From the IMG/VR virus record IMGVR_UViG_3300031715_000027, positions 1-21,821 of that record: a stretch of 21,821 nt of DNA; one strand, given 5' to 3'. The position numbers were made by a program, and so were the translations under genes. The stretch comes from a virus. This document shows positions 1,976 through 12,283 of the stretch, piece by piece. The notes beneath the pieces were generated by a model. It saw only the letters and a list, made by a program, of their open reading frames with translations. It did no database searches and had not been told where the DNA came from. Numbering within the stretch: the stretch's first letter is position 1; the number at the start of each line of letters is the position of its first letter.

Positions 1976-2293
1976 TCAGACAGGCACGGTGATCAGGGTA
2001 ACGGTCGAGGTCTTCAGGCCGGCGGCGGGGATGAAGGTGACCACGAGCAGATAGCTATGGCCCACCTCGAGCGCTGAGCCCTGGACCCTCTGGATTACCG
2101 AGTTGCCGGACACCACGGGCGCGTCCGCCAGGGCGATGGCAGTGCTCGGCAGGTCGGTGAGCGTCGACGTCGGCGTGGAGACCGCCTCGCCCGGCTGGAG
2201 GACCCCCGTCATGTCGATCTGCCAGTCCCAGATCTCGGTGGTCGCCTGGACGACCATCGGCGGGACCGTGGCCAGCTTGCCGTAGTTGGTCAT
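1976..2293 (-). CDS. Small late-operon structural protein (fibre-associated)
   Basis: A 105-residue protein with no signal peptide or membrane segment. It is rich in beta-formers and resembles the short Ig-like proteins that accompany actinophage tail fibres: a W-D-W core near 22-24, GEAVSTPTSTLTDL in the middle and a VTF/VTLI C-terminal strand. It is the last gene of the late operon. Its ATG overlaps the TGA of the repeat-protein gene upstream (ATGA at 2293-2290), and GGAGG lies about 10 nt before the start. Translation is therefore likely coupled to that of the repeat protein. The precise function is unknown; a fibre or virion accessory protein is an inference from position. Confidence 0.7.
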   Translation of the reverse strand: MTNYGKLATVPPMVVQATTEIWDWQIDMTGVLQPGEAVSTPTSTLTDLPSTAIALADAPVVSGNSVIQRVQGSALEVGHSYLLVVTFIPAAGLKTSTVTLITVPV

Positions 2294-3555
2294 GCGGGCT
2301 GTGCCTCCAGAACGGGGCGGGACTGGGCCAGGACGCCGGATGGTCGATCGAGGGCCGCCAGCTGCCCGTCGCGCTGCGCGGCAGAGACCCTGTCTCGAGG
2401 CGAGCCGGCCACAACGGCGGGACGGGACTGGGCCAGGAGAACGAAGGTGGGAACGCTGGCTATCGGGACGAAGACATTCGCCGCGTCGCTCAGGATCAGC
2501 GAGTCGGCACCGTGACCCGGCTGTGCACCGGTGCGCGCCGAGTCTCCCAGTATCAGGGTGTCCCTCAACGCTGCCTGTCTGAAGGCGGCCGTGGCGCTGT
2601 CGGTGAGAACGAGAGCGTTAGCGCTGCTCGAAGGCTGGCGGGTCACCTTCGCGGTGTCGACGATCGAAATGGCGTCCATCGTGTGTGCCGGTTGCGTGCT
2701 GGACCGAACGGTGTCGGCAAGTGTGACGGGATCCGTCGTGTGCCCCGGCTGGGCTGTGAGCCGAGCCGAGTCGGCGAGAGTGAGGGCGTCGACACTGCGG
2801 GCTGGCTGGCTCCCAAGTCGAGCGGCGTCGGCGAGCTCCAGCAGATCCATCGCGCGGGCCAGTTGCGCCGCGGTCCGGGCGCTGTCCGTCAGGGTCACTG
2901 CATCGGTAGCCTGTGCGGGCTGCAGGGCGACTCTGGCGGTATCCGTAAGGGTTGCGCTGTCCGTGGAATGGGCTGGCTGGGCCGTCGGACGCGCCGAGTC
3001 GGCGACAACGACGAAGTCGGTCGCACGGGCACCCTGCACTGTGGGACGGCCTGAGTCGGTTAGTACGAGAGCGTCCGTGGCGTGGGCCGGTTGGGTCGTC
3101 AAGCGGGCCGTGTCAGTGAGGACGAGGCTGTCGGTGCTCCGGGCCGGTTGCGATGTCAGCCTGGCAGTGTCGGCCACCAAGAGGCTGTCGGTAGCGTCCG
3201 CGGCTTGAGCGGTGGCGCGGGCGCTGTCGGAGATGACCAGGCTGCTCGTGCCGTGCCCCGGCTGGGCTGTGAGCCGAACCGAGTCGGACACGATGAGCGT
3301 GTCGGTGCAGCGGGCTGGTTGAGCCGTCAGGCGCGCCGAGTCGGTAAGAACCAGGGCGTCGGTGGCACGGGCGCCCTGCATCTTGACCCGAACCGTGTCG
3401 GACACAACCAGGCTGTCGGTGCTGTGAACCGGTTGAGCGGCGGCGCGGGCGCTGTCGGAGATGACCAGGGCATCGGTGACCGGGAAGACGTACGCCTCGT
3501 GCAGGTGCGCCGATACATTCGTCGGCGGAGCCGGGACGAACCGCCAGCCGGGCAT
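2290..3555 (-). CDS. Tandem-repeat protein, probable tail fibre shaft
   Basis: A 421-residue protein built mainly of 18 consecutive repeats of exactly 19 residues (residues 27-368). The consensus is close to TDsLvltDsARltAQPArs, with the two Asp, the Ala-Arg pair and Gln-Pro best kept. The last repeats are more worn. A short N-terminal segment (1-26) and a C-terminal tail with two LAQSRP motifs flank the array. No signal peptide or membrane helix is seen. Regular short hydrophobic/Asp repeats suggest a rod or beta-structured fibre, but I know of no named family. It starts 1 nt after the stop of the preceding lectin-like gene, with GGAG about 9 nt ahead, and overlaps the last gene of the operon. 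The cluster position supports a fibre role. Confidence 0.75.
   Translation of the reverse strand: MPGWRFVPAPPTNVSAHLHEAYVFPVTDALVISDSARAAAQPVHSTDSLVVSDTVRVKMQGARATDALVLTDSARLTAQPARCTDTLIVSDSVRLTAQPGHGTSSLVISDSARATAQAADATDSLLVADTARLTSQPARSTDSLVLTDTARLTTQPAHATDALVLTDSGRPTVQGARATDFVVVADSARPTAQPAHSTDSATLTDTARVALQPAQATDAVTLTDSARTAAQLARAMDLLELADAARLGSQPARSVDALTLADSARLTAQPGHTTDPVTLADTVRSSTQPAHTMDAISIVDTAKVTRQPSSSANALVLTDSATAAFRQAALRDTLILGDSARTGAQPGHGADSLILSDAANVFVPIASVPTFVLLAQSRPAVVAGSPRDRVSAAQRDGQLAALDRPSGVLAQSRPVLEAQPA
2452..3477 (-). repeat. 18 x 57-bp in-frame tandem repeat array
   Basis: Coding repeats of 57 bp without any indel between units, diverged at the nucleotide level but kept at the amino-acid level. 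This shows selection on the unit length of 19 residues, and makes recombination-based change in repeat number possible. Confidence 0.85.
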
Positions 3556-7056: not shown

Positions 7057-7490
7057 GGACCTCCCTCTGGCGAGATGCAGACCCTCGAGTGCACCTCGGC
7101 GGTGAGTGCCTCCACGGCTTTCGTCAGCACTGTGTTCTGCCTCAGGAGCTCGCGGGTGTCCTCGCTCACCTCGAGGTGGTGAAGCGCCTGCTCGGCTGCG
7201 ACCTGGTCGGCCCGCTTTGCAGCGATGAGGAGGATCGCCGCCTGTAGCCCCGCCATCGTCGACAGCAGCAGGTTCAAAAGGATGTAAGGGTAGGGGTCGA
7301 AGGCGCGGTGGTGCAGGACGCGCGTGATGAGCTCGGTGTTGACGATCGCCCAGAGCACCATCGCGACCAGGAAGCTGATAACGAAGGGCCAGCTCCCCAT
7401 CGAGTTGCGCATGTAGTCCGCCCACCGCTCCCCTCGGGTGAGCTGTGAACCGGTGCGCACCGCCGGATGGCGATGCCAGGGGGAGCTCAC
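7053..7490 (-). CDS. DUF1003 membrane protein
   Basis: A 145-residue integral membrane protein. The DUF1003 pattern is clear: RGERWADYMRNSMGSWPF leads into the first TM helix (about 34-54), the short loop ends with FDPYPYILLNLLLS, and the second TM helix (about 68-90) is followed by AAKRADQVAAEQ and a charged, probably coiled-coil C-terminal region. GTG at 7490 overlaps the TGA of the upstream gene (GTGA) and has little Shine-Dalgarno sequence, so it depends on coupling. The family's biochemical function is unknown. Its place among lysin, holin-like and NlpC-like genes suggests a role in membrane or envelope changes at lysis, or protection of the membrane (inference). Confidence 0.85.
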   Translation of the reverse strand: MSSPWHRHPAVRTGSQLTRGERWADYMRNSMGSWPFVISFLVAMVLWAIVNTELITRVLHHRAFDPYPYILLNLLLSTMAGLQAAILLIAAKRADQVAAEQALHHLEVSEDTRELLRQNTVLTKAVEALTAEVHSRVCISPEGGP

Positions 7491-8092
7491 CCTGTGGTCG
7501 CCGCCGGTGCTGGCTGTGTAGGTCCGGTATAGGGCGTCCACTCGCCGCCCACCGGCGCGGGGCCCTGGCCGTTCCAGGTGAACAGTGGAGCGCTGGCCGG
7601 AGTCACCACATCCGCCTTGGGCCACACGGTCAGATCGACGGTCGTGGGATCGCCGGCGAAGGCGAACAGCACCTCGGGCGCCGGAGCCGACGGGGGCACG
7701 GCGGAAGGGTCAGGGAGGGCTTCCACGGGAGCAGCCGGGGTCGGGGTCGCCGTGACGGGAGCGGACTCGGGAACGGCTGCCGCAGCCTCGGCGGGTGGAG
7801 GCGCCTCGGCTGGCGCCTTCGGCGCCGGCACGTCGTCCACCGGTGCCGCTGAAGCCGGTGCAGGCTGGTTGCGGGCGATGGCCGCGTGGGCCCAGAAGGC
7901 GACCTCCTCGAGCTTCGTGAGCACGAGCGAGGCCTCGCGGCCCTGCGGGAGCGCTTCGACCAACTGGATAGCCGGGCCCTCGAGCAGTTGGCGGACCTTG
8001 CCGTGCATAGCGGCCACGGCATCGGAGGAAGGCGGCCAACGGAACCGCTTCGCGAGGTCGTCGAGGATCTCGGTCGGAAGGTCTGAACCCAT
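7487..8092 (-). CDS. Acb2/Tad1-like cyclic-nucleotide sponge from internal start
   Basis: Alternative 201-residue product in the same frame, starting at ATG 8092. Upstream lies GAAAAGGAGACA followed by 3 nt and the ATG. The same 12 bases with the same spacing precede the major capsid gene, so this is very likely a real start. The protein begins MGSDLPTEILDDLAKRF, carries the Acb2/Tad1-like hairpin at about residues 9-76, then the Pro/Ala-rich linker and tail. Known Acb2 proteins are soluble multimers that sequester CBASS signals; this form lacks the TM helix and would act in the cytoplasm. The Tyr expected in the family's RFTYHPP-like segment (from memory) is Trp here (RFRWPP). Which signals it binds cannot be told from sequence. 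Confidence 0.75.
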   Translation of the reverse strand: MGSDLPTEILDDLAKRFRWPPSSDAVAAMHGKVRQLLEGPAIQLVEALPQGREASLVLTKLEEVAFWAHAAIARNQPAPASAAPVDDVPAPKAPAEAPPPAEAAAAVPESAPVTATPTPAAPVEALPDPSAVPPSAPAPEVLFAFAGDPTTVDLTVWPKADVVTPASAPLFTWNGQGPAPVGGEWTPYTGPTQPAPAATTG

Positions 8093-8437
8093 GGATGTCT
8101 CCTTTTCGACGGTGCCCGACGAGGAGTCGGACTTGATGGACGGTCCTGCAGAGCTGAGGAGAACGTCGAGCTTTCGATGCAGCTCGGCGTTCGATGATTC
8201 GATGTGGGATTTGAGCTCGGCGGTAATGGCGGCGTTTTTGGCGAGGTGCTTGTGAATCCAGGCGTCGAAGCGCTTTCGAACCCGAGGCCACAGTAGGTAG
8301 CTGGCGAAGGCCGCGATGCCGCCGCAGATGATCCAGGCCGAGAAGTTGGGACCCCAATTGAAGGGCTGCCAGATCGCTGCGAACCAGTGCCGCAGCAGAT
8401 CGAGGTAGTGGACGAAGAGGTGGTTGGGACCGGTCAC
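7487..8437 (-). CDS. Membrane-anchored Acb2/Tad1-family domain protein
   Basis: Full-length product of 316 aa from GTG at 8437, preceded by AGGAG at 7-nt spacing. Residues about 32-50 form one TM helix (FSAWIICGGIAAFASYLLW), followed by a basic then coiled-coil segment (about 53-100). Residues about 124-191 match the Acb2/Tad1 hairpin family: RFRWPP near the start and GREASLVLTKLEEV + FWAHAAIARN at 166-190. Acb2 proteins bind cyclic di- and trinucleotides and block CBASS immunity. A Pro/Ala-rich linker (192-254) and a short C-terminal segment follow. There is no stop codon between the membrane part and the sponge domain. The N-terminal part alone resembles small one-TM proteins of actinophage lysis cassettes. 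The fusion may be genuine or a lost stop codon between two genes; an internal start is listed separately. Confidence 0.8.
   Translation of the reverse strand: MTGPNHLFVHYLDLLRHWFAAIWQPFNWGPNFSAWIICGGIAAFASYLLWPRVRKRFDAWIHKHLAKNAAITAELKSHIESSNAELHRKLDVLLSSAGPSIKSDSSSGTVEKETSMGSDLPTEILDDLAKRFRWPPSSDAVAAMHGKVRQLLEGPAIQLVEALPQGREASLVLTKLEEVAFWAHAAIARNQPAPASAAPVDDVPAPKAPAEAPPPAEAAAAVPESAPVTATPTPAAPVEALPDPSAVPPSAPAPEVLFAFAGDPTTVDLTVWPKADVVTPASAPLFTWNGQGPAPVGGEWTPYTGPTQPAPAATTG
8096..8107 (-). promoter_or_regulatory. Strong internal ribosome-binding site (Acb2-like start)
   Basis: GAAAAGGAGACA, 3 nt before ATG 8092, inside the longer reading frame. It is identical in sequence and spacing to 21805-21816 in front of the major capsid gene. 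Confidence 0.8.
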
Positions 8438-8459
8438 GTTTGCTCTCCTGCTCGACGGC

Positions 8460-8828
8460 TCAAACCTGGTCCGAGGCCCTCCGGCGCTGGTAGGGCTTGA
8501 GCACCTCCTCGGGCACACCCAAGTGGGTGGCCACGTCGATGATCAGGTCGCGCGAGGTGGCGATCCGCTCGATCGTCTCTATCCGGCCGGCCTGGGAGTC
8601 GAGGAGGTCCTGTTGGTGGCTGTTCTGCTCCTGGAGTCGCTTGACCTGTGCCTTCAGGACCTCGATCTCGACCGAGGCTGCTGAGAGAGCCTGGTCCTGG
8701 GCGGTAGCGACCGTGAGCTTCCTCGTCCCCGCGATGGTGACGATGCTGGCGGTCAACAGGCTCAGGACGCCGAAGACGCCGAGAATGATCCCGCCAGCGG
8801 ATCCCCACACAACGGTCGCGGTCGTCAT
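8460..8828 (-). CDS. One-TM coiled-coil membrane protein (holin/spanin-like)
   Basis: A 122-residue protein. A Gly-rich N-terminal TM helix (about 8-34) is followed by a long coiled coil (about 42-88, SVEIEVLKAQVKRLQEQNSH) and a short helix ending VPEEVLKPYQRRRASDQV. The ATG overlaps the TGA of the previous gene (ATGA at 8828-8825). Next to a lysin-like gene and other small membrane proteins, it is a candidate holin accessory or spanin-like component. The sequence has no lipobox and no decisive motif, so this is only a positional inference. Confidence 0.7.
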   Translation of the reverse strand: MTTATVVWGSAGGIILGVFGVLSLLTASIVTIAGTRKLTVATAQDQALSAASVEIEVLKAQVKRLQEQNSHQQDLLDSQAGRIETIERIATSRDLIIDVATHLGVPEEVLKPYQRRRASDQV

Positions 8829-9139
8829 CTACACATGACGTGGATCACGTAGTCGGCCCGGTTGCGATTACCCATGACCACCAAGTTGATGTCATGGAGG
8901 ACGTCGTTCATTGCCCGCACCTGACATTTCTCGCGCCGTGTCGACACCTGTGTGTTGTGCCTCTGGCCTCCCTCGATGTTCCCGACGGCGATCGAGACGT
9001 AGACCAGTGCGCCGATCGTGATCGCGAGAGTGGCTGTGAGGGCGATCGACACCCGCCGCCACAGCTGGGAGTTGAACCTTTCGACAGCATCGGTCGCGGA
9101 CTTCGTATCCGCGATGAGGCCGGTCGCGGTATCGCTCAC
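8825..9139 (-). CDS. Small one-TM membrane protein of the lysis region
   Basis: A 104-residue protein with a polar N-terminal helix (about 1-28), one TM helix (about 30-53, ALTATLAITIGALVYVSIAV) and a polar C-terminal domain with two Cys (REKCQ and the penultimate residue). It starts 1 nt after the stop of the lysin-like gene and overlaps the next gene. Similar small TM proteins are common next to endolysin genes in actinophages. Holin or lysis-regulator function is possible but unproven. Confidence 0.7.
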   Translation of the reverse strand: MSDTATGLIADTKSATDAVERFNSQLWRRVSIALTATLAITIGALVYVSIAVGNIEGGQRHNTQVSTRREKCQVRAMNDVLHDINLVVMGNRNRADYVIHVMCR

Positions 9140-9140
9140 C

Positions 9141-9431
9141 TCAGACCAGGCTCGGTTCCCAGGCGCCGAACTTGGCGGCTCCTGCCACGATCGAGAAGGC
9201 GAGAGACTGGCCGTTCGAGCGCTCGGCGGTGACCACGAGCTCGTTCGGAGAGATGGAGCCGACCGGGAAGGTCTCGACCTTCGGCTCGCCGGCGAAATCC
9301 CCGCAGGGAAGTCCTGCGTTCTCGGCGATGTCGAAGTACCCGAAGGTCTTGATGCAGAGATAGAGGTGCCCGTTCACGATCTGGGTGTAGCAATCCTCGC
9401 CGTTGAACTGTCGAGCCTTGGAAACTGCCAT
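9141..9431 (-). CDS. Possible separate 96-aa product from internal start
   Basis: Within the lysin frame, ATG 9431 is preceded by GGAGG (9444-9440) at 8-nt spacing. The product would begin MAVSKARQFNGEDCYTQIVNG and consist only of the C-terminal beta-rich domain, with three Cys and a SNGQSLAFSIVAGAA segment near the end. I do not recognise the family. It may be a wall-binding module supplied both fused and free, as seen for some phage endolysins with internal starts, or an originally separate gene whose upstream neighbour has lost its stop. Confidence 0.5.
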   Translation of the reverse strand: MAVSKARQFNGEDCYTQIVNGHLYLCIKTFGYFDIAENAGLPCGDFAGEPKVETFPVGSISPNELVVTAERSNGQSLAFSIVAGAAKFGAWEPSLV

Positions 9432-9938
9432 CGGTGGAACCTCCGGTGTGGTTAGTGGCGCGGGTTCGAAGAAGTCGTCGGCGAGCAGCGATTCGTCCCA
9501 GGGACCGTGGTCGATCCACTGCGTCCCGTCGCACTGCGGGCCGAGCTTGCAGGTAGTGGGTCCGCAGATGTGCGTGCCGGCGCCGTAGTGCGCCGACAGA
9601 AGCCGGTAGGAAGCTCGCTCGTGGCTGGCAGCGGTCTGCAGGGCCACGATGTTCGCCATCCGGGTGATCGAGGCGTATACCACCGGACGCCACTCGCCAG
9701 CGGCCAGGCGTTCGGCGACGTAGGTCACCGTGTCTGCGTCGGAAGCATCGCCGGGTTCGTCGTCGATGCCTTCGCCTCGGTTAGCCAGGAAAACTGTGAG
9801 CTCGAGGAGATGGGCCGAGCCGTGGGCGGCAGCGACGGCCTGGAAATCCGGCCAGTTGCCGTCGTCGTAGCCCGCGTACGCGTCGAAGCCGGTCGGCAGG
9901 TTGCCGGGCAGGATGGCATCGGCCATGCGGAGTGTCAC
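9141..9938 (-). CDS. Glycosidase-like (GH25/DUF1906-type) lysin with C-terminal domain
   Basis: A 265-residue product from GTG at 9938, with AGGAGG at 8-nt spacing. Residues about 8-165 look like the TIM-barrel glycosidase-like proteins found in actinobacteria and their phages: an opening GFDAYAGYDDGNWPDF, an acidic IDDEPGDA (about 58-65), RPVVYAS on a later strand, RLLSAHYGAGTHICGP, and a closing CDGTQW with DDFF. The acidic residues are candidates for catalysis. After a Pro/Thr linker comes a separate 96-residue beta-rich domain that has its own internal start at 9431. The position between the propeller fibre and the membrane proteins suits a peptidoglycan hydrolase for entry or lysis. The family assignment is by pattern only. 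Confidence 0.7.
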   Translation of the reverse strand: MTLRMADAILPGNLPTGFDAYAGYDDGNWPDFQAVAAAHGSAHLLELTVFLANRGEGIDDEPGDASDADTVTYVAERLAAGEWRPVVYASITRMANIVALQTAASHERASYRLLSAHYGAGTHICGPTTCKLGPQCDGTQWIDHGPWDESLLADDFFEPAPLTTPEVPPMAVSKARQFNGEDCYTQIVNGHLYLCIKTFGYFDIAENAGLPCGDFAGEPKVETFPVGSISPNELVVTAERSNGQSLAFSIVAGAAKFGAWEPSLV

Positions 9939-9950
9939 AGGTCTGTCCTC

Positions 9951-11123
9951 CTAGATGGCGAACCGCATCAGGCCGTAGGCCCCCGAGGCGATCCACAGGT
10001 TGCCGTCGGGCCCATTGCATATCCCGTCGCTCGGAACGAGCTGCACAGGGAAGGGTGTGGCGGCCATGCCAGGGTCGGAGAAGCGCATCAGGTTGAACGG
10101 GCCGGTCGGGTCGCGCTGTGTCGCCCACAGGTTGCCGTCGGACCCGAGCGCGAGACCGCCGAGGGCCACGGACGAGGCGATGACGCTGATGGAGCCGGCC
10201 GTGGTGACCTTCGCGAAGTAACCGGTTGTCCCCCCGTCGAACACGGCCACCCACAGATACGTCCCGTCGCTCACGATCGACTGCCAGGTCGTGTTGCCGC
10301 GGTTGCCGACGATGCCGGACCAGCCGTTGTAAAGCGTCTGCACGCCAGCCGTGGTGACCGCCAAGATGGGCGTAGGCCCCGAGTTGGAGGTCACCCACAG
10401 CCTGCCGTCGGGCCCTGAGCAGACACTGCCCGGCTGGTAGTTGGCCCCGCCGGCGAGCCCGTACTCCGTGATGGTCAGGGTGGAGAGGTTCATCTGGGCG
10501 AGCTTCGGGTAGCCCGAGTAGACCTCGGTGAACCAGACATTGCTGTCCGGGCCCACGCAGATCCCGTAGGGGTAGGAGTTGCCGGAACCACCCGGACAGG
10601 CGTACTCGGTCATCACCCCGGCGGTCGTGGTTCGCACGATCCGGTACTCGTTCTGCTCGCACCACCAGAGGTTCCCGTCGGGGGCCGCCACGATGCCGCC
10701 CCCGCTGCCGGCGACGGCGCCAGAGCGCGGCGCGGCGTAGGAGGCCAGCACCGCGCCCGCTGTGCTGTATTTCACGACCGCATTGGCACCCGCGTCGAGT
10801 GTCCAGAGGTTCCCGTCGGGCCCCGAGCAGACCGAGATGATGTTGGAGGTCCCCGGTGTCGGGGGCTGGAAGGCGTAGCCTCCCCCGTTGCTCGGTGGCG
10901 CGCCCGGCAGCCCATGGTCGTGATCGCCCCGGGCGAAATGCGCCGTGTCCATCCCCACGTGTGCTGCTGCGCCGAAGGCATCTGGACCTGTGACCGTGGT
11001 CGCCGGCGCTGGCCCAGCTGTGGCCGGTTGGGCCGCGATCCAGTTCTCGATGCGCTTGAGTCGCTCCTGCGCGGCCTGGAGCGTGGTGAGCAGGTGACGG
11101 CCTGCAGTGGGGACGGTCTTCAC
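9951..11123 (-). CDS. Tail fibre with seven-bladed Vgb-like beta-propeller
   Basis: A 390-residue protein. GTG at 11123 overlaps the TGA of the previous gene (GTGA), with no clear Shine-Dalgarno sequence. A short coiled coil (about 9-30) precedes a fibre collar motif, HFARGDHDHGLP (about 62-73), typical of phage tail fibres. Seven repeats of the form GPDGNLW then follow, as in virginiamycin B lyase-like and SMP-30-like propellers: GPDGNLWTLD, APDGNLWWCE, GPDSNVWFTE, GPDGRLWVTS, DGTYLWVAVF, GSDGNLWATQ and GPDGNLWIAS. The propeller occupies about 95-390. A receptor-binding tail tip protein is the best reading. Lyase activity is not expected, since the tail-fibre collar sets the context. Confidence 0.85.
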   Translation of the reverse strand: MKTVPTAGRHLLTTLQAAQERLKRIENWIAAQPATAGPAPATTVTGPDAFGAAAHVGMDTAHFARGDHDHGLPGAPPSNGGGYAFQPPTPGTSNIISVCSGPDGNLWTLDAGANAVVKYSTAGAVLASYAAPRSGAVAGSGGGIVAAPDGNLWWCEQNEYRIVRTTTAGVMTEYACPGGSGNSYPYGICVGPDSNVWFTEVYSGYPKLAQMNLSTLTITEYGLAGGANYQPGSVCSGPDGRLWVTSNSGPTPILAVTTAGVQTLYNGWSGIVGNRGNTTWQSIVSDGTYLWVAVFDGGTTGYFAKVTTAGSISVIASSVALGGLALGSDGNLWATQRDPTGPFNLMRFSDPGMAATPFPVQLVPSDGICNGPDGNLWIASGAYGLMRFAI

Positions 11124-12283
11124 AACGGAGGCAGGTAGGGAACGGAGGCCACTGGCGGCACGTTCAGCGTGATCGCGGTCGTAGCGACTCCTTCGTCGGG
11201 AACCGTCGTGTCCAGGCGCTGGACTCTCCAGACGATGTCCCAGCCGCCCGGAAAGCACAGGTCTCCCGCGGGCAGGTGGACCCGCAGGTCGTCGCCCGGG
11301 CTCAGCACGTCCGGGCCCATGAGCGCGGCATTCGTGGTGAGCACAGGGGCCACCACCGGGTAGCCCGCCGCTGCCAGGTAGGACTGCAGGAGCTGGATGA
11401 GGAAGTAGGGGCTCGTGTTGCCGGCGAGCCCGGCCTGGCTGACGACCTGCTCGAGCAGTGGCCAGGGCCCTCCTGAGGCTACGAAGCCACCCTCGGCCGA
11501 CTGGCCCCCGAGGGCGAGCATGTACTCGAAGTTCCCCATCTGTGTCGCGTCCGCGGGGTACTCGAAGTCGACACAGACGTCACCGCCGACGTCGACCGTC
11601 TGGTACCAACCGCCCGAGCCGTAGATGTTGCCGGTGCGTGGATATTCGAAGTTGGCGCTCGCCGTGAGGGCATTGCCTATGCCGTAGGCCGGCTTCACCC
11701 GGTAGTCGAAGCCGCCCGCTTCGTACCCCTGCTGCGCGAGCGTCTGGACGATCGAATCGACGGTCTGCTGCTCGGTCTGTGGATAGCTGGCATTGACCCA
11801 GTAGGCCGAGGGACTCGGTGGCGACGCGTTAGCCACGATCGGCGGCGAGTAGATGTTGAACGCGGGATAGTTGACCTGCAGGGCGTCGTGGGTCACCTGG
11901 TAAGCGATCGCCTGCGGGTCCGTCAGCGTCGTGGCCCAGGTGGTCGTGTAGTCCGCTGCTTGAACCCGGGCCGCGAAGTAGCTCCAGAACTCCGAACCAC
12001 CGATGGCGACGGAGCGAGAGGACCGGGTGTAGTCCTTCGTCCAGACGATGCCGCCCCATGCGATCGCCCCGTCGAGGTCGACGACGAGCGCCGTACGCGC
12101 GGGGATGATGTAGGGACTGATCCCCGCGTTGGCCGGCTCCGAGAGGTCGATCGTCCCCTGGAACTGGCCAGCGGCGTTGAGCTCCGAGGAGAACGACACT
12201 CCGGTCATCCACGGCACGTCGCCGATGTAGGCGAAGTCCGCCAGCCGGTAGAGCCGGTAGCGGAGGCTGGCCGCGAGGCTCAT
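11120..12283 (-). CDS. Minor tail protein, tail-hub / Gp37-like
   Basis: A 387-residue protein whose ATG (12283) overlaps the TGA of the distal tail gene (ATGA). The N-terminal part, with SFSSELNAAGQFQGTIDL followed by a GAIAWGGIVW strand, resembles the Gp37-like minor tail proteins of siphoviruses, related to the baseplate hub. A long mixed region with many Tyr and Trp follows, and the C-terminal third has DDLRVHLPAGDLCFPGG and WRVQRLDTTVPDEGV. It sits directly after the tape measure and distal tail genes, where the tail-associated hub is expected. Role: completing the tail tip and linking to the propeller fibre encoded next. Confidence 0.75.
   Translation of the reverse strand: MSLAASLRYRLYRLADFAYIGDVPWMTGVSFSSELNAAGQFQGTIDLSEPANAGISPYIIPARTALVVDLDGAIAWGGIVWTKDYTRSSRSVAIGGSEFWSYFAARVQAADYTTTWATTLTDPQAIAYQVTHDALQVNYPAFNIYSPPIVANASPPSPSAYWVNASYPQTEQQTVDSIVQTLAQQGYEAGGFDYRVKPAYGIGNALTASANFEYPRTGNIYGSGGWYQTVDVGGDVCVDFEYPADATQMGNFEYMLALGGQSAEGGFVASGGPWPLLEQVVSQAGLAGNTSPYFLIQLLQSYLAAAGYPVVAPVLTTNAALMGPDVLSPGDDLRVHLPAGDLCFPGGWDIVWRVQRLDTTVPDEGVATTAITLNVPPVASVPYLPPL

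What the first reader, a model, noticed from the sequence alone, without database searches (positions are those of the whole stretch)
7487..8437. Anti-CBASS Acb2/Tad1-like sponge domain joined to a membrane anchor
Seen: a 316-aa frame with one TM helix, a coiled coil, then a segment (RFRWPP ... GREASLVLTKLEEV, FWAHAAIARN) that matches the Acb2/Tad1 hairpin family, then a Pro/Ala linker. Known: Acb2 proteins sequester cyclic di- and trinucleotides and block CBASS; those I know of are small soluble multimers. Inference: a tethered form would place the sponge beside membrane CBASS effectors, and its late-operon expression would act when CBASS is triggered. I know of no described membrane-anchored Acb2.
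Basis: partly seen in the sequence, partly recalled or inferred. Interest (0 to 1): 0.88.

Follow-up and report, generated by a model that had tools for sequence, protein, structure and literature searches.

The report
Membrane-anchored Acb2-family phage sponge fusion
A soil-phage gene in a late, probably lysis-related cluster joins a membrane anchor to a small domain of the Acb2/Tad1 family, whose studied members soak up bacterial alarm molecules; a second start signal inside the gene suggests the phage also makes the usual free version.

Summary
The 316-aa ORF (window 7487-8437, MINUS strand; the finding gives no strand) has one TM helix, a long helix, an Acb2/Tad1 hairpin domain (Pfam PF24729, 2.1e-9, 37.9 bits, cut-off 27; PHROG 1454, 1.5e-15) and a Pro/Ala tail. 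AlphaFold gives the family's short helix plus two-helix hairpin (mean pLDDT 92 for the domain alone). Codon statistics support one coding frame throughout. No stop occurs in any minus-strand frame between 8436 and 7712, and a second contig is identical here.

Two refinements. An internal ATG (8092, M116) carries a strong Shine-Dalgarno, the same 12-mer that precedes the major capsid gene, at the place where homologues begin. A dual-start gene making anchored and free Acb2 is therefore likely. Among 208 other homologues examined, none has a convincing N-terminal TM fusion. Several (CherryBlossom, prophi91-3, L028, L042) carry acb2 as a separate gene beside holin or other membrane genes.

Ligand and function are untested. 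The clade lacks T4 Acb2's stacking Phe82, and this protein departs from it at two conserved positions. CBASS inhibition is inferred. I judge it a new variant of a known kind.

The parts
7487..8437 (-). Fusion ORF, 316 aa: TM anchor + helix + Acb2/Tad1 hairpin domain + Pro/Ala tail
   Evidence: one open frame, coding bias throughout (weak in the tail), no stop in any minus frame from 8436 to 7712
8438..8450 (-). Shine-Dalgarno CAGGAG (8450-8445) before GTG 8437
   Evidence: sequence; duplex energy -7.4
8288..8344 (-). Predicted TM helix, residues 32-50; more K/R on its C-terminal side (positive-inside: C-terminal part cytoplasmic)
   Evidence: K+R 6 in residues 51-75, 1 in residues 1-32
8150..8287 (-). 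Cytoplasmic continuation of the long helix, residues 51-96, possible coiled coil
   Evidence: H32-96, pLDDT about 90
8090..8107 (-). Internal translation start: GAAAAGGAGACA-TCC-ATG, Met116; the 12-mer occurs elsewhere only before the major capsid gene (8107 and 21816)
   Evidence: expected 0.0004 occurrences on this strand
7871..8092 (-). Acb2/Tad1 hairpin domain as found free in homologues, residues 116-189 (Pfam match 147-189)
7490..7870 (-). Pro/Ala-rich tail with a low-confidence beta segment (residues 256-288)
   Evidence: no family or phage match
7053..7490 (-). Downstream DUF1003 membrane protein; candidate GTG 7490 overlaps the TGA of the fusion ORF (GTGA), translational coupling inferred
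   Evidence: PF06210 5.7e-21; sequence
8460..8828 (-). Upstream small protein with one apparent N-terminal TM segment and a helical part
   Evidence: sequence; only weak hits
8825..9139 (-). Upstream small protein with one apparent TM segment
   Evidence: sequence
9141..9938 (-). Candidate endolysin (identity inferred from position and sequence look, not shown by a profile)
   Evidence: relatives L135-L139; L135 has the same lysin-candidate then small-TM gene order

Best explanation
A late phage gene arose by in-frame fusion of a small TM/helix gene with a downstream acb2-family gene that kept its own ribosome-binding site. Translation from GTG 8437 gives a 316-aa protein anchored N-out/C-in, with the Acb2 domain held in the cytoplasm on a long helix. 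Translation from ATG 8092 gives a 201-aa free form. The two forms probably co-assemble into Acb2-type multimers that bind cyclic-nucleotide defence signals and keep them from their effectors, partly at the inner membrane, during the late phase. Shown: frame, domain, TM segment, second start signal, separate acb2 genes beside membrane genes elsewhere. Inferred: that both products are made, multimers form, ligand is bound, the role is anti-defence, and membrane placement matters.
For: PF24729 above its cut-off, PHROG 1454, BFVD fold matches nearly all named Acb2/Tad1 hairpin proteins at probability about 1. Conserved core kept: R149, R167, E168, T174, E177, W182, R189. T4 Thr68, whose T68M change lowers binding (PMC12657230), aligns with T174; T4 Tyr8, needed for binding (PMC12657218), plausibly corresponds to aromatic W134 (my reading of the GY-KP / RW-PP stretch; the MAFFT row itself leaves a gap there). 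The internal SD and ATG lie where free homologues start. Coding bias across the join. Separate acb2 next to holin or TM genes: CherryBlossom holin then acb2 8 nt later, prophi91-3 lysA-lysB-acb2-holin, L028/L042 between TM genes.
Against: No binding or expression data. Near-invariant Asn of WANAAIAR (102 of 103 homologues) is His here, and the His of RFxxH is lost, although CherryBlossom Acb2 also has His at the first site. T4 Phe82, which stacks on ligand, is Ala188 here, as in nearly the whole clade. PDB Foldseek gave no significant match. The fusion is known from one virus only, and the N-terminal part has no detectable relatives.
Confidence: 0.55

Rival explanations
1. The free 201-aa Acb2 from ATG 8092 is the only functional sponge. 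The TM part is an ordinary small lysis-region membrane protein that merely lost its stop codon, and the anchor has no role in defence evasion.
For: Internal start as strong as the capsid gene's; all other homologues are free proteins starting at this point; fusion seen in one virus.
Against: GTG 8437 also has a good SD and the N-terminal part is under normal coding bias, so the long form should be made; no decay is visible.
Confidence: 0.22
2. The hairpin domain is kept as an oligomerisation or structural module of a membrane protein and no longer binds nucleotides.
For: Changes at two conserved positions, Asn184 to His and loss of the His in RFxxH; domain score is lower than free homologues (37.9 against 61-80 bits).
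Against: Most invariant residues including R149, R167, E168, T174, E177 and R189 are kept; CherryBlossom Acb2, a free protein, scores the same (37.4 bits).
Confidence: 0.12
3. The domain senses rather than sponges: binding of a defence signal by the anchored protein changes lysis timing or membrane state.
For: Position among small TM genes after a candidate lysin; TM joined to the ligand domain through a continuous helix and a linker.
Against: No known Acb2 acts as a sensor; no lysis function shown for this TM part; its hydrophobic segment is single and of modest score (1.63).
Confidence: 0.06
4. Assembly artefact: two separate genes joined by a sequencing or assembly error.
For: Metagenome contigs; no independent relative carries the fusion.
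Against: Two contigs identical here; no stop in any minus frame from 8436 to 7712, so a single indel could not restore separate genes ending before acb2.
Confidence: 0.03

Closest known systems
Acb2 (T4 Vs.4; Pseudomonas phage p26 type), PF24729
   Same: Same Pfam domain (T4 Vs.4 7.1e-20); short helix plus two-helix hairpin; T4 Thr68 equals T174 here
   Different: Known ones are free proteins of about 90 aa forming hexamers; direct similarity is weak; T4 Phe82 is replaced by Ala; here a TM anchor and tail are attached
Tad1 (Thoeris anti-defence 1), C-terminal hairpin
   Same: Clade profile matches Tad1 chains in the PDB (0.0014)
   Different: Tad1 has an N-terminal beta sheet before the hairpin (PMC12043709); none here
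PDB 9ptq 'Acb2 homolog 43'
   Same: Closest solved sequence (2.1e-10 with the profile), six chains
   Different: 76 aa, free, no anchor
Separate acb2 genes beside holins: Streptomyces phage CherryBlossom gp29-gp30; Mycobacterium prophage prophi91-3 gp62-gp63
   Same: acb2-family gene in a lysis region next to a holin
   Different: Separate genes with stops between them; no sequence relation between CherryBlossom holin and this TM part

Membership tests
Acb2/Tad1 hairpin family (PF24729) | Profile score above the curated cut-off | tested here: met
   37.9 bits against 27; 40.3
Acb2/Tad1 hairpin family (PF24729) | Short N-terminal helix plus two long antiparallel helices | tested here: met
   H7-16, H24-47, H52-74, mean pLDDT 91.6; BFVD family matches
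Acb2/Tad1 hairpin family (PF24729) | Conserved core residues of the clade | tested here: met
   Most kept; exceptions Asn184 to His and the RFxxH His
Acb2 proper (anti-CBASS sponge) | Ligand-stacking residues as in T4 (Tyr8, Phe82) | tested here: inconclusive
   Tyr8 position probably W134 (aromatic); Phe82 position is Ala188, as in nearly the whole clade
Acb2 proper (anti-CBASS sponge) | Hexamer formation | not testable with these tools
   Only monomer prediction available
Acb2 proper (anti-CBASS sponge) | Binds cyclic di- and trinucleotides and blocks CBASS | not testable with these tools
   Needs biochemistry and infection tests
Acb2 proper (anti-CBASS sponge) | Small free protein | tested here: not met
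   Full-length ORF is anchored; a free form from ATG 8092 would meet it
Tad1 | N-terminal beta sheet before the hairpin | tested here: not met
   No strands before the hairpin in the model
Phage holin families | Profile match of the TM part | tested here: not met
   No Pfam match for residues 1-115

The most novel reading that the evidence does not exclude
A membrane-tethered ligand-binding protein in the lysis region that couples detection of a bacterial defence nucleotide to lysis timing or membrane protection, with the free form from the internal start tuning its threshold.
Probability: 0.06. Interest if true: 0.85.

Novelty: new variant of a known kind. Interest (0 to 1): 0.5.

Why it matters
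Anti-defence sponges are described as small free multimers. A natural anchored version with a built-in second start would test whether placing a sponge at the membrane, where effectors such as CapV and Cap15 act, changes protection. It also draws attention to acb2-family genes placed in phage lysis regions, where they are annotated as hypothetical proteins.

Tried and rejected
The long open frames upstream of acb2 in other loci (up to 419 aa) looked like fusions but are chance GC-rich frames; each has a start at the domain itself, most with an SD. L152-L154 showed hydrophobic upstream stretches, but the L154 sequence read has no good start there and a strong SD directly before the domain. PADLOC and NCBIfam gave nothing for the fusion protein. 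Foldseek against PDB was uninformative. No relatives of the N-terminal part were found in viral contigs or phage records, and its similarity to the L135 small TM protein is only E 0.029 for a single comparison. A Pfam or PDB identity for the candidate lysin was not obtained. Host could not be assigned: no tRNA in the window, capsid relatives spread over many hosts. A 195-aa relative in the fold library, the MalagasyRose protein, was not inspected.

Full report
OBSERVATION. The finding's coordinates are right, but the gene is on the minus strand: GTG 8437 to TGA 7489-7487, 316 aa. The protein matches Pfam PF24729 (Acb2/Tad1 hairpin) with 37.9 bits against a curated cut-off of 27, E 2.1e-9, and PHROG 1454 with 1.5e-15. 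Residues 32-50 form one hydrophobic segment (1.63 on the Kyte-Doolittle scale), with six K/R in residues 51-75 and one in 1-32, so by the positive-inside rule the Acb2 part should be cytoplasmic. AlphaFold2 on a 51-sequence alignment gives a continuous helix 32-96, then helices 122-133, 139-162 and 167-189 at high confidence, and a mostly disordered tail with a weak beta segment. The domain alone reaches mean pLDDT 91.6, and the best matches in the viral fold library are mostly Acb2/Tad1 hairpin proteins. PDB Foldseek was uninformative.

ONE GENE. Codon log-odds favour this frame over the other five in the N-terminal part (0.29 per codon) and the Acb2 part (0.31), as in neighbouring genes; the tail is weaker, 0.05. 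On the minus strand no stop occurs in any frame between 8436 and 7712, so a single indel error would not yield a separate upstream gene. Contig IMGVR_UViG_3300031753_000300 is identical here, with one mismatch in 19.8 kb; it may be the same population, so this is only partly independent.

SECOND START. An ATG at 8092 (Met116) is preceded by GAAAAGGAGACATCC. The 12-mer GAAAAGGAGACA occurs only twice on the minus strand, here and before the major capsid gene, with duplex energy -8.7 in both cases; among 85 internal ATGs in the window's genes only one scores better. Met116 lies where free homologues begin, a few residues before RFxxH. I infer that the gene makes a 316-aa anchored and a 201-aa free form, though neither product has been seen.

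RELATIVES. I examined 128 homologous loci (10 named phages, 80 viral contigs, 38 genomes) and 80 of a second clade. None has a convincing coding TM segment N-terminal to the domain; long upstream frames are chance frames. Two other fusions were seen: L151 (HAD-like N-terminal part, PF18143 3.5e-4, below its cut-off) and L202 (C-terminal extension). acb2-family genes next to membrane genes recur as separate genes: CherryBlossom gp29 holin (PF16938 6.6e-22) followed 8 nt later by gp30 (PF24729 2.9e-9); prophi91-3 between lysin B and holin; L028 and L042 between TM genes. In the window the order is tape measure, tail genes, a candidate lysin, two small TM genes, the fusion, and DUF1003. A distant relative, L135, has the candidate lysin followed by small TM genes and no acb2 nearby. 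Fusion of a TM gene with a downstream acb2 gene is thus an easy origin.

FUNCTION. Structurally characterised Acb2 and Tad1 sequester signals as hexamers (PMC12043709, PMC10419184). In T4 Acb2, Tyr8, Thr68 and Phe82 matter for binding (PMC12657218 and PMC12657230). Thr68 corresponds to T174 here. Tyr8 probably corresponds to W134, by my reading of the GY-KP and RW-PP stretches; the MAFFT row leaves a gap there. Phe82 corresponds to Ala188, as in nearly the whole clade. This protein also has His for the near-invariant Asn184 and lacks the His of RFxxH; CherryBlossom Acb2 has His at the first of these sites too. The clade's profile finds 'Acb2 homolog 43' and Tad1 in the PDB, not T4 Vs.4 or p26. 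So a nucleotide-signal sponge is the best reading, but which signal, and whether CBASS is the target, cannot be told.

TETHER. An anchored sponge could act close to membrane effectors (CapV, Cap15), and mixed multimers could be built from few anchored and many free subunits. This is inference. Alternatives are an idle anchor, a structural module, or a sensor in lysis; see the rivals.

VERDICT. Real, a member of the family by the tests available, and an architecture I did not find elsewhere. Because the domain is well known, acb2 in lysis regions is not new, and the function is untested, I call it a new variant of a known kind, interest 0.5.

Noticed in passing
L151:1138-1701 (IMGVR_UViG_3300019124_000089): Acb2-type domain fused in frame to an N-terminal HAD-like part (PF24729 9e-24; PF18143 3.5e-4, below its cut-off), with no Met at the domain start: possibly another natural Acb2 fusion.
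   Followed up: partly
L202:1501-2103 (IMGVR_UViG_3300010167_000395): Acb2 domain followed by an acidic linker and a C-terminal segment that looks like an Ig-like/Big2 domain by eye (no Pfam hit).
   Followed up: partly
L235:4277-4884 (Streptomyces phage CherryBlossom), L014:1429-2169, L028, L042: acb2-family genes annotated as hypothetical (or unannotated) sit in lysis regions beside holin or TM genes; a systematic survey may be worthwhile.
   Followed up: partly
L233:792-998 (Brevibacillus phage Jenst) and Paenibacillus phage Diane (hit H118): acb2-family genes are annotated as phosphomannomutase in some phage records, likely a naming error.
   Followed up: no
window 2290-3555, minus strand: Protein with degenerate repeats of about 19 aa (TDSLVLTDTARL..QPA), fibre-like; repeats also show in DNA.
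   Followed up: no
window 9951-11258, minus strand: Virginiamycin B lyase-type propeller domain (PF24684 1.6e-29) in a tail-region gene.
   Followed up: no
BFVD A0A5J6TE31 (Mycobacterium phage MalagasyRose): 195-aa Acb2/Tad1 hairpin protein, much longer than usual; not inspected for a TM segment.
   Followed up: no
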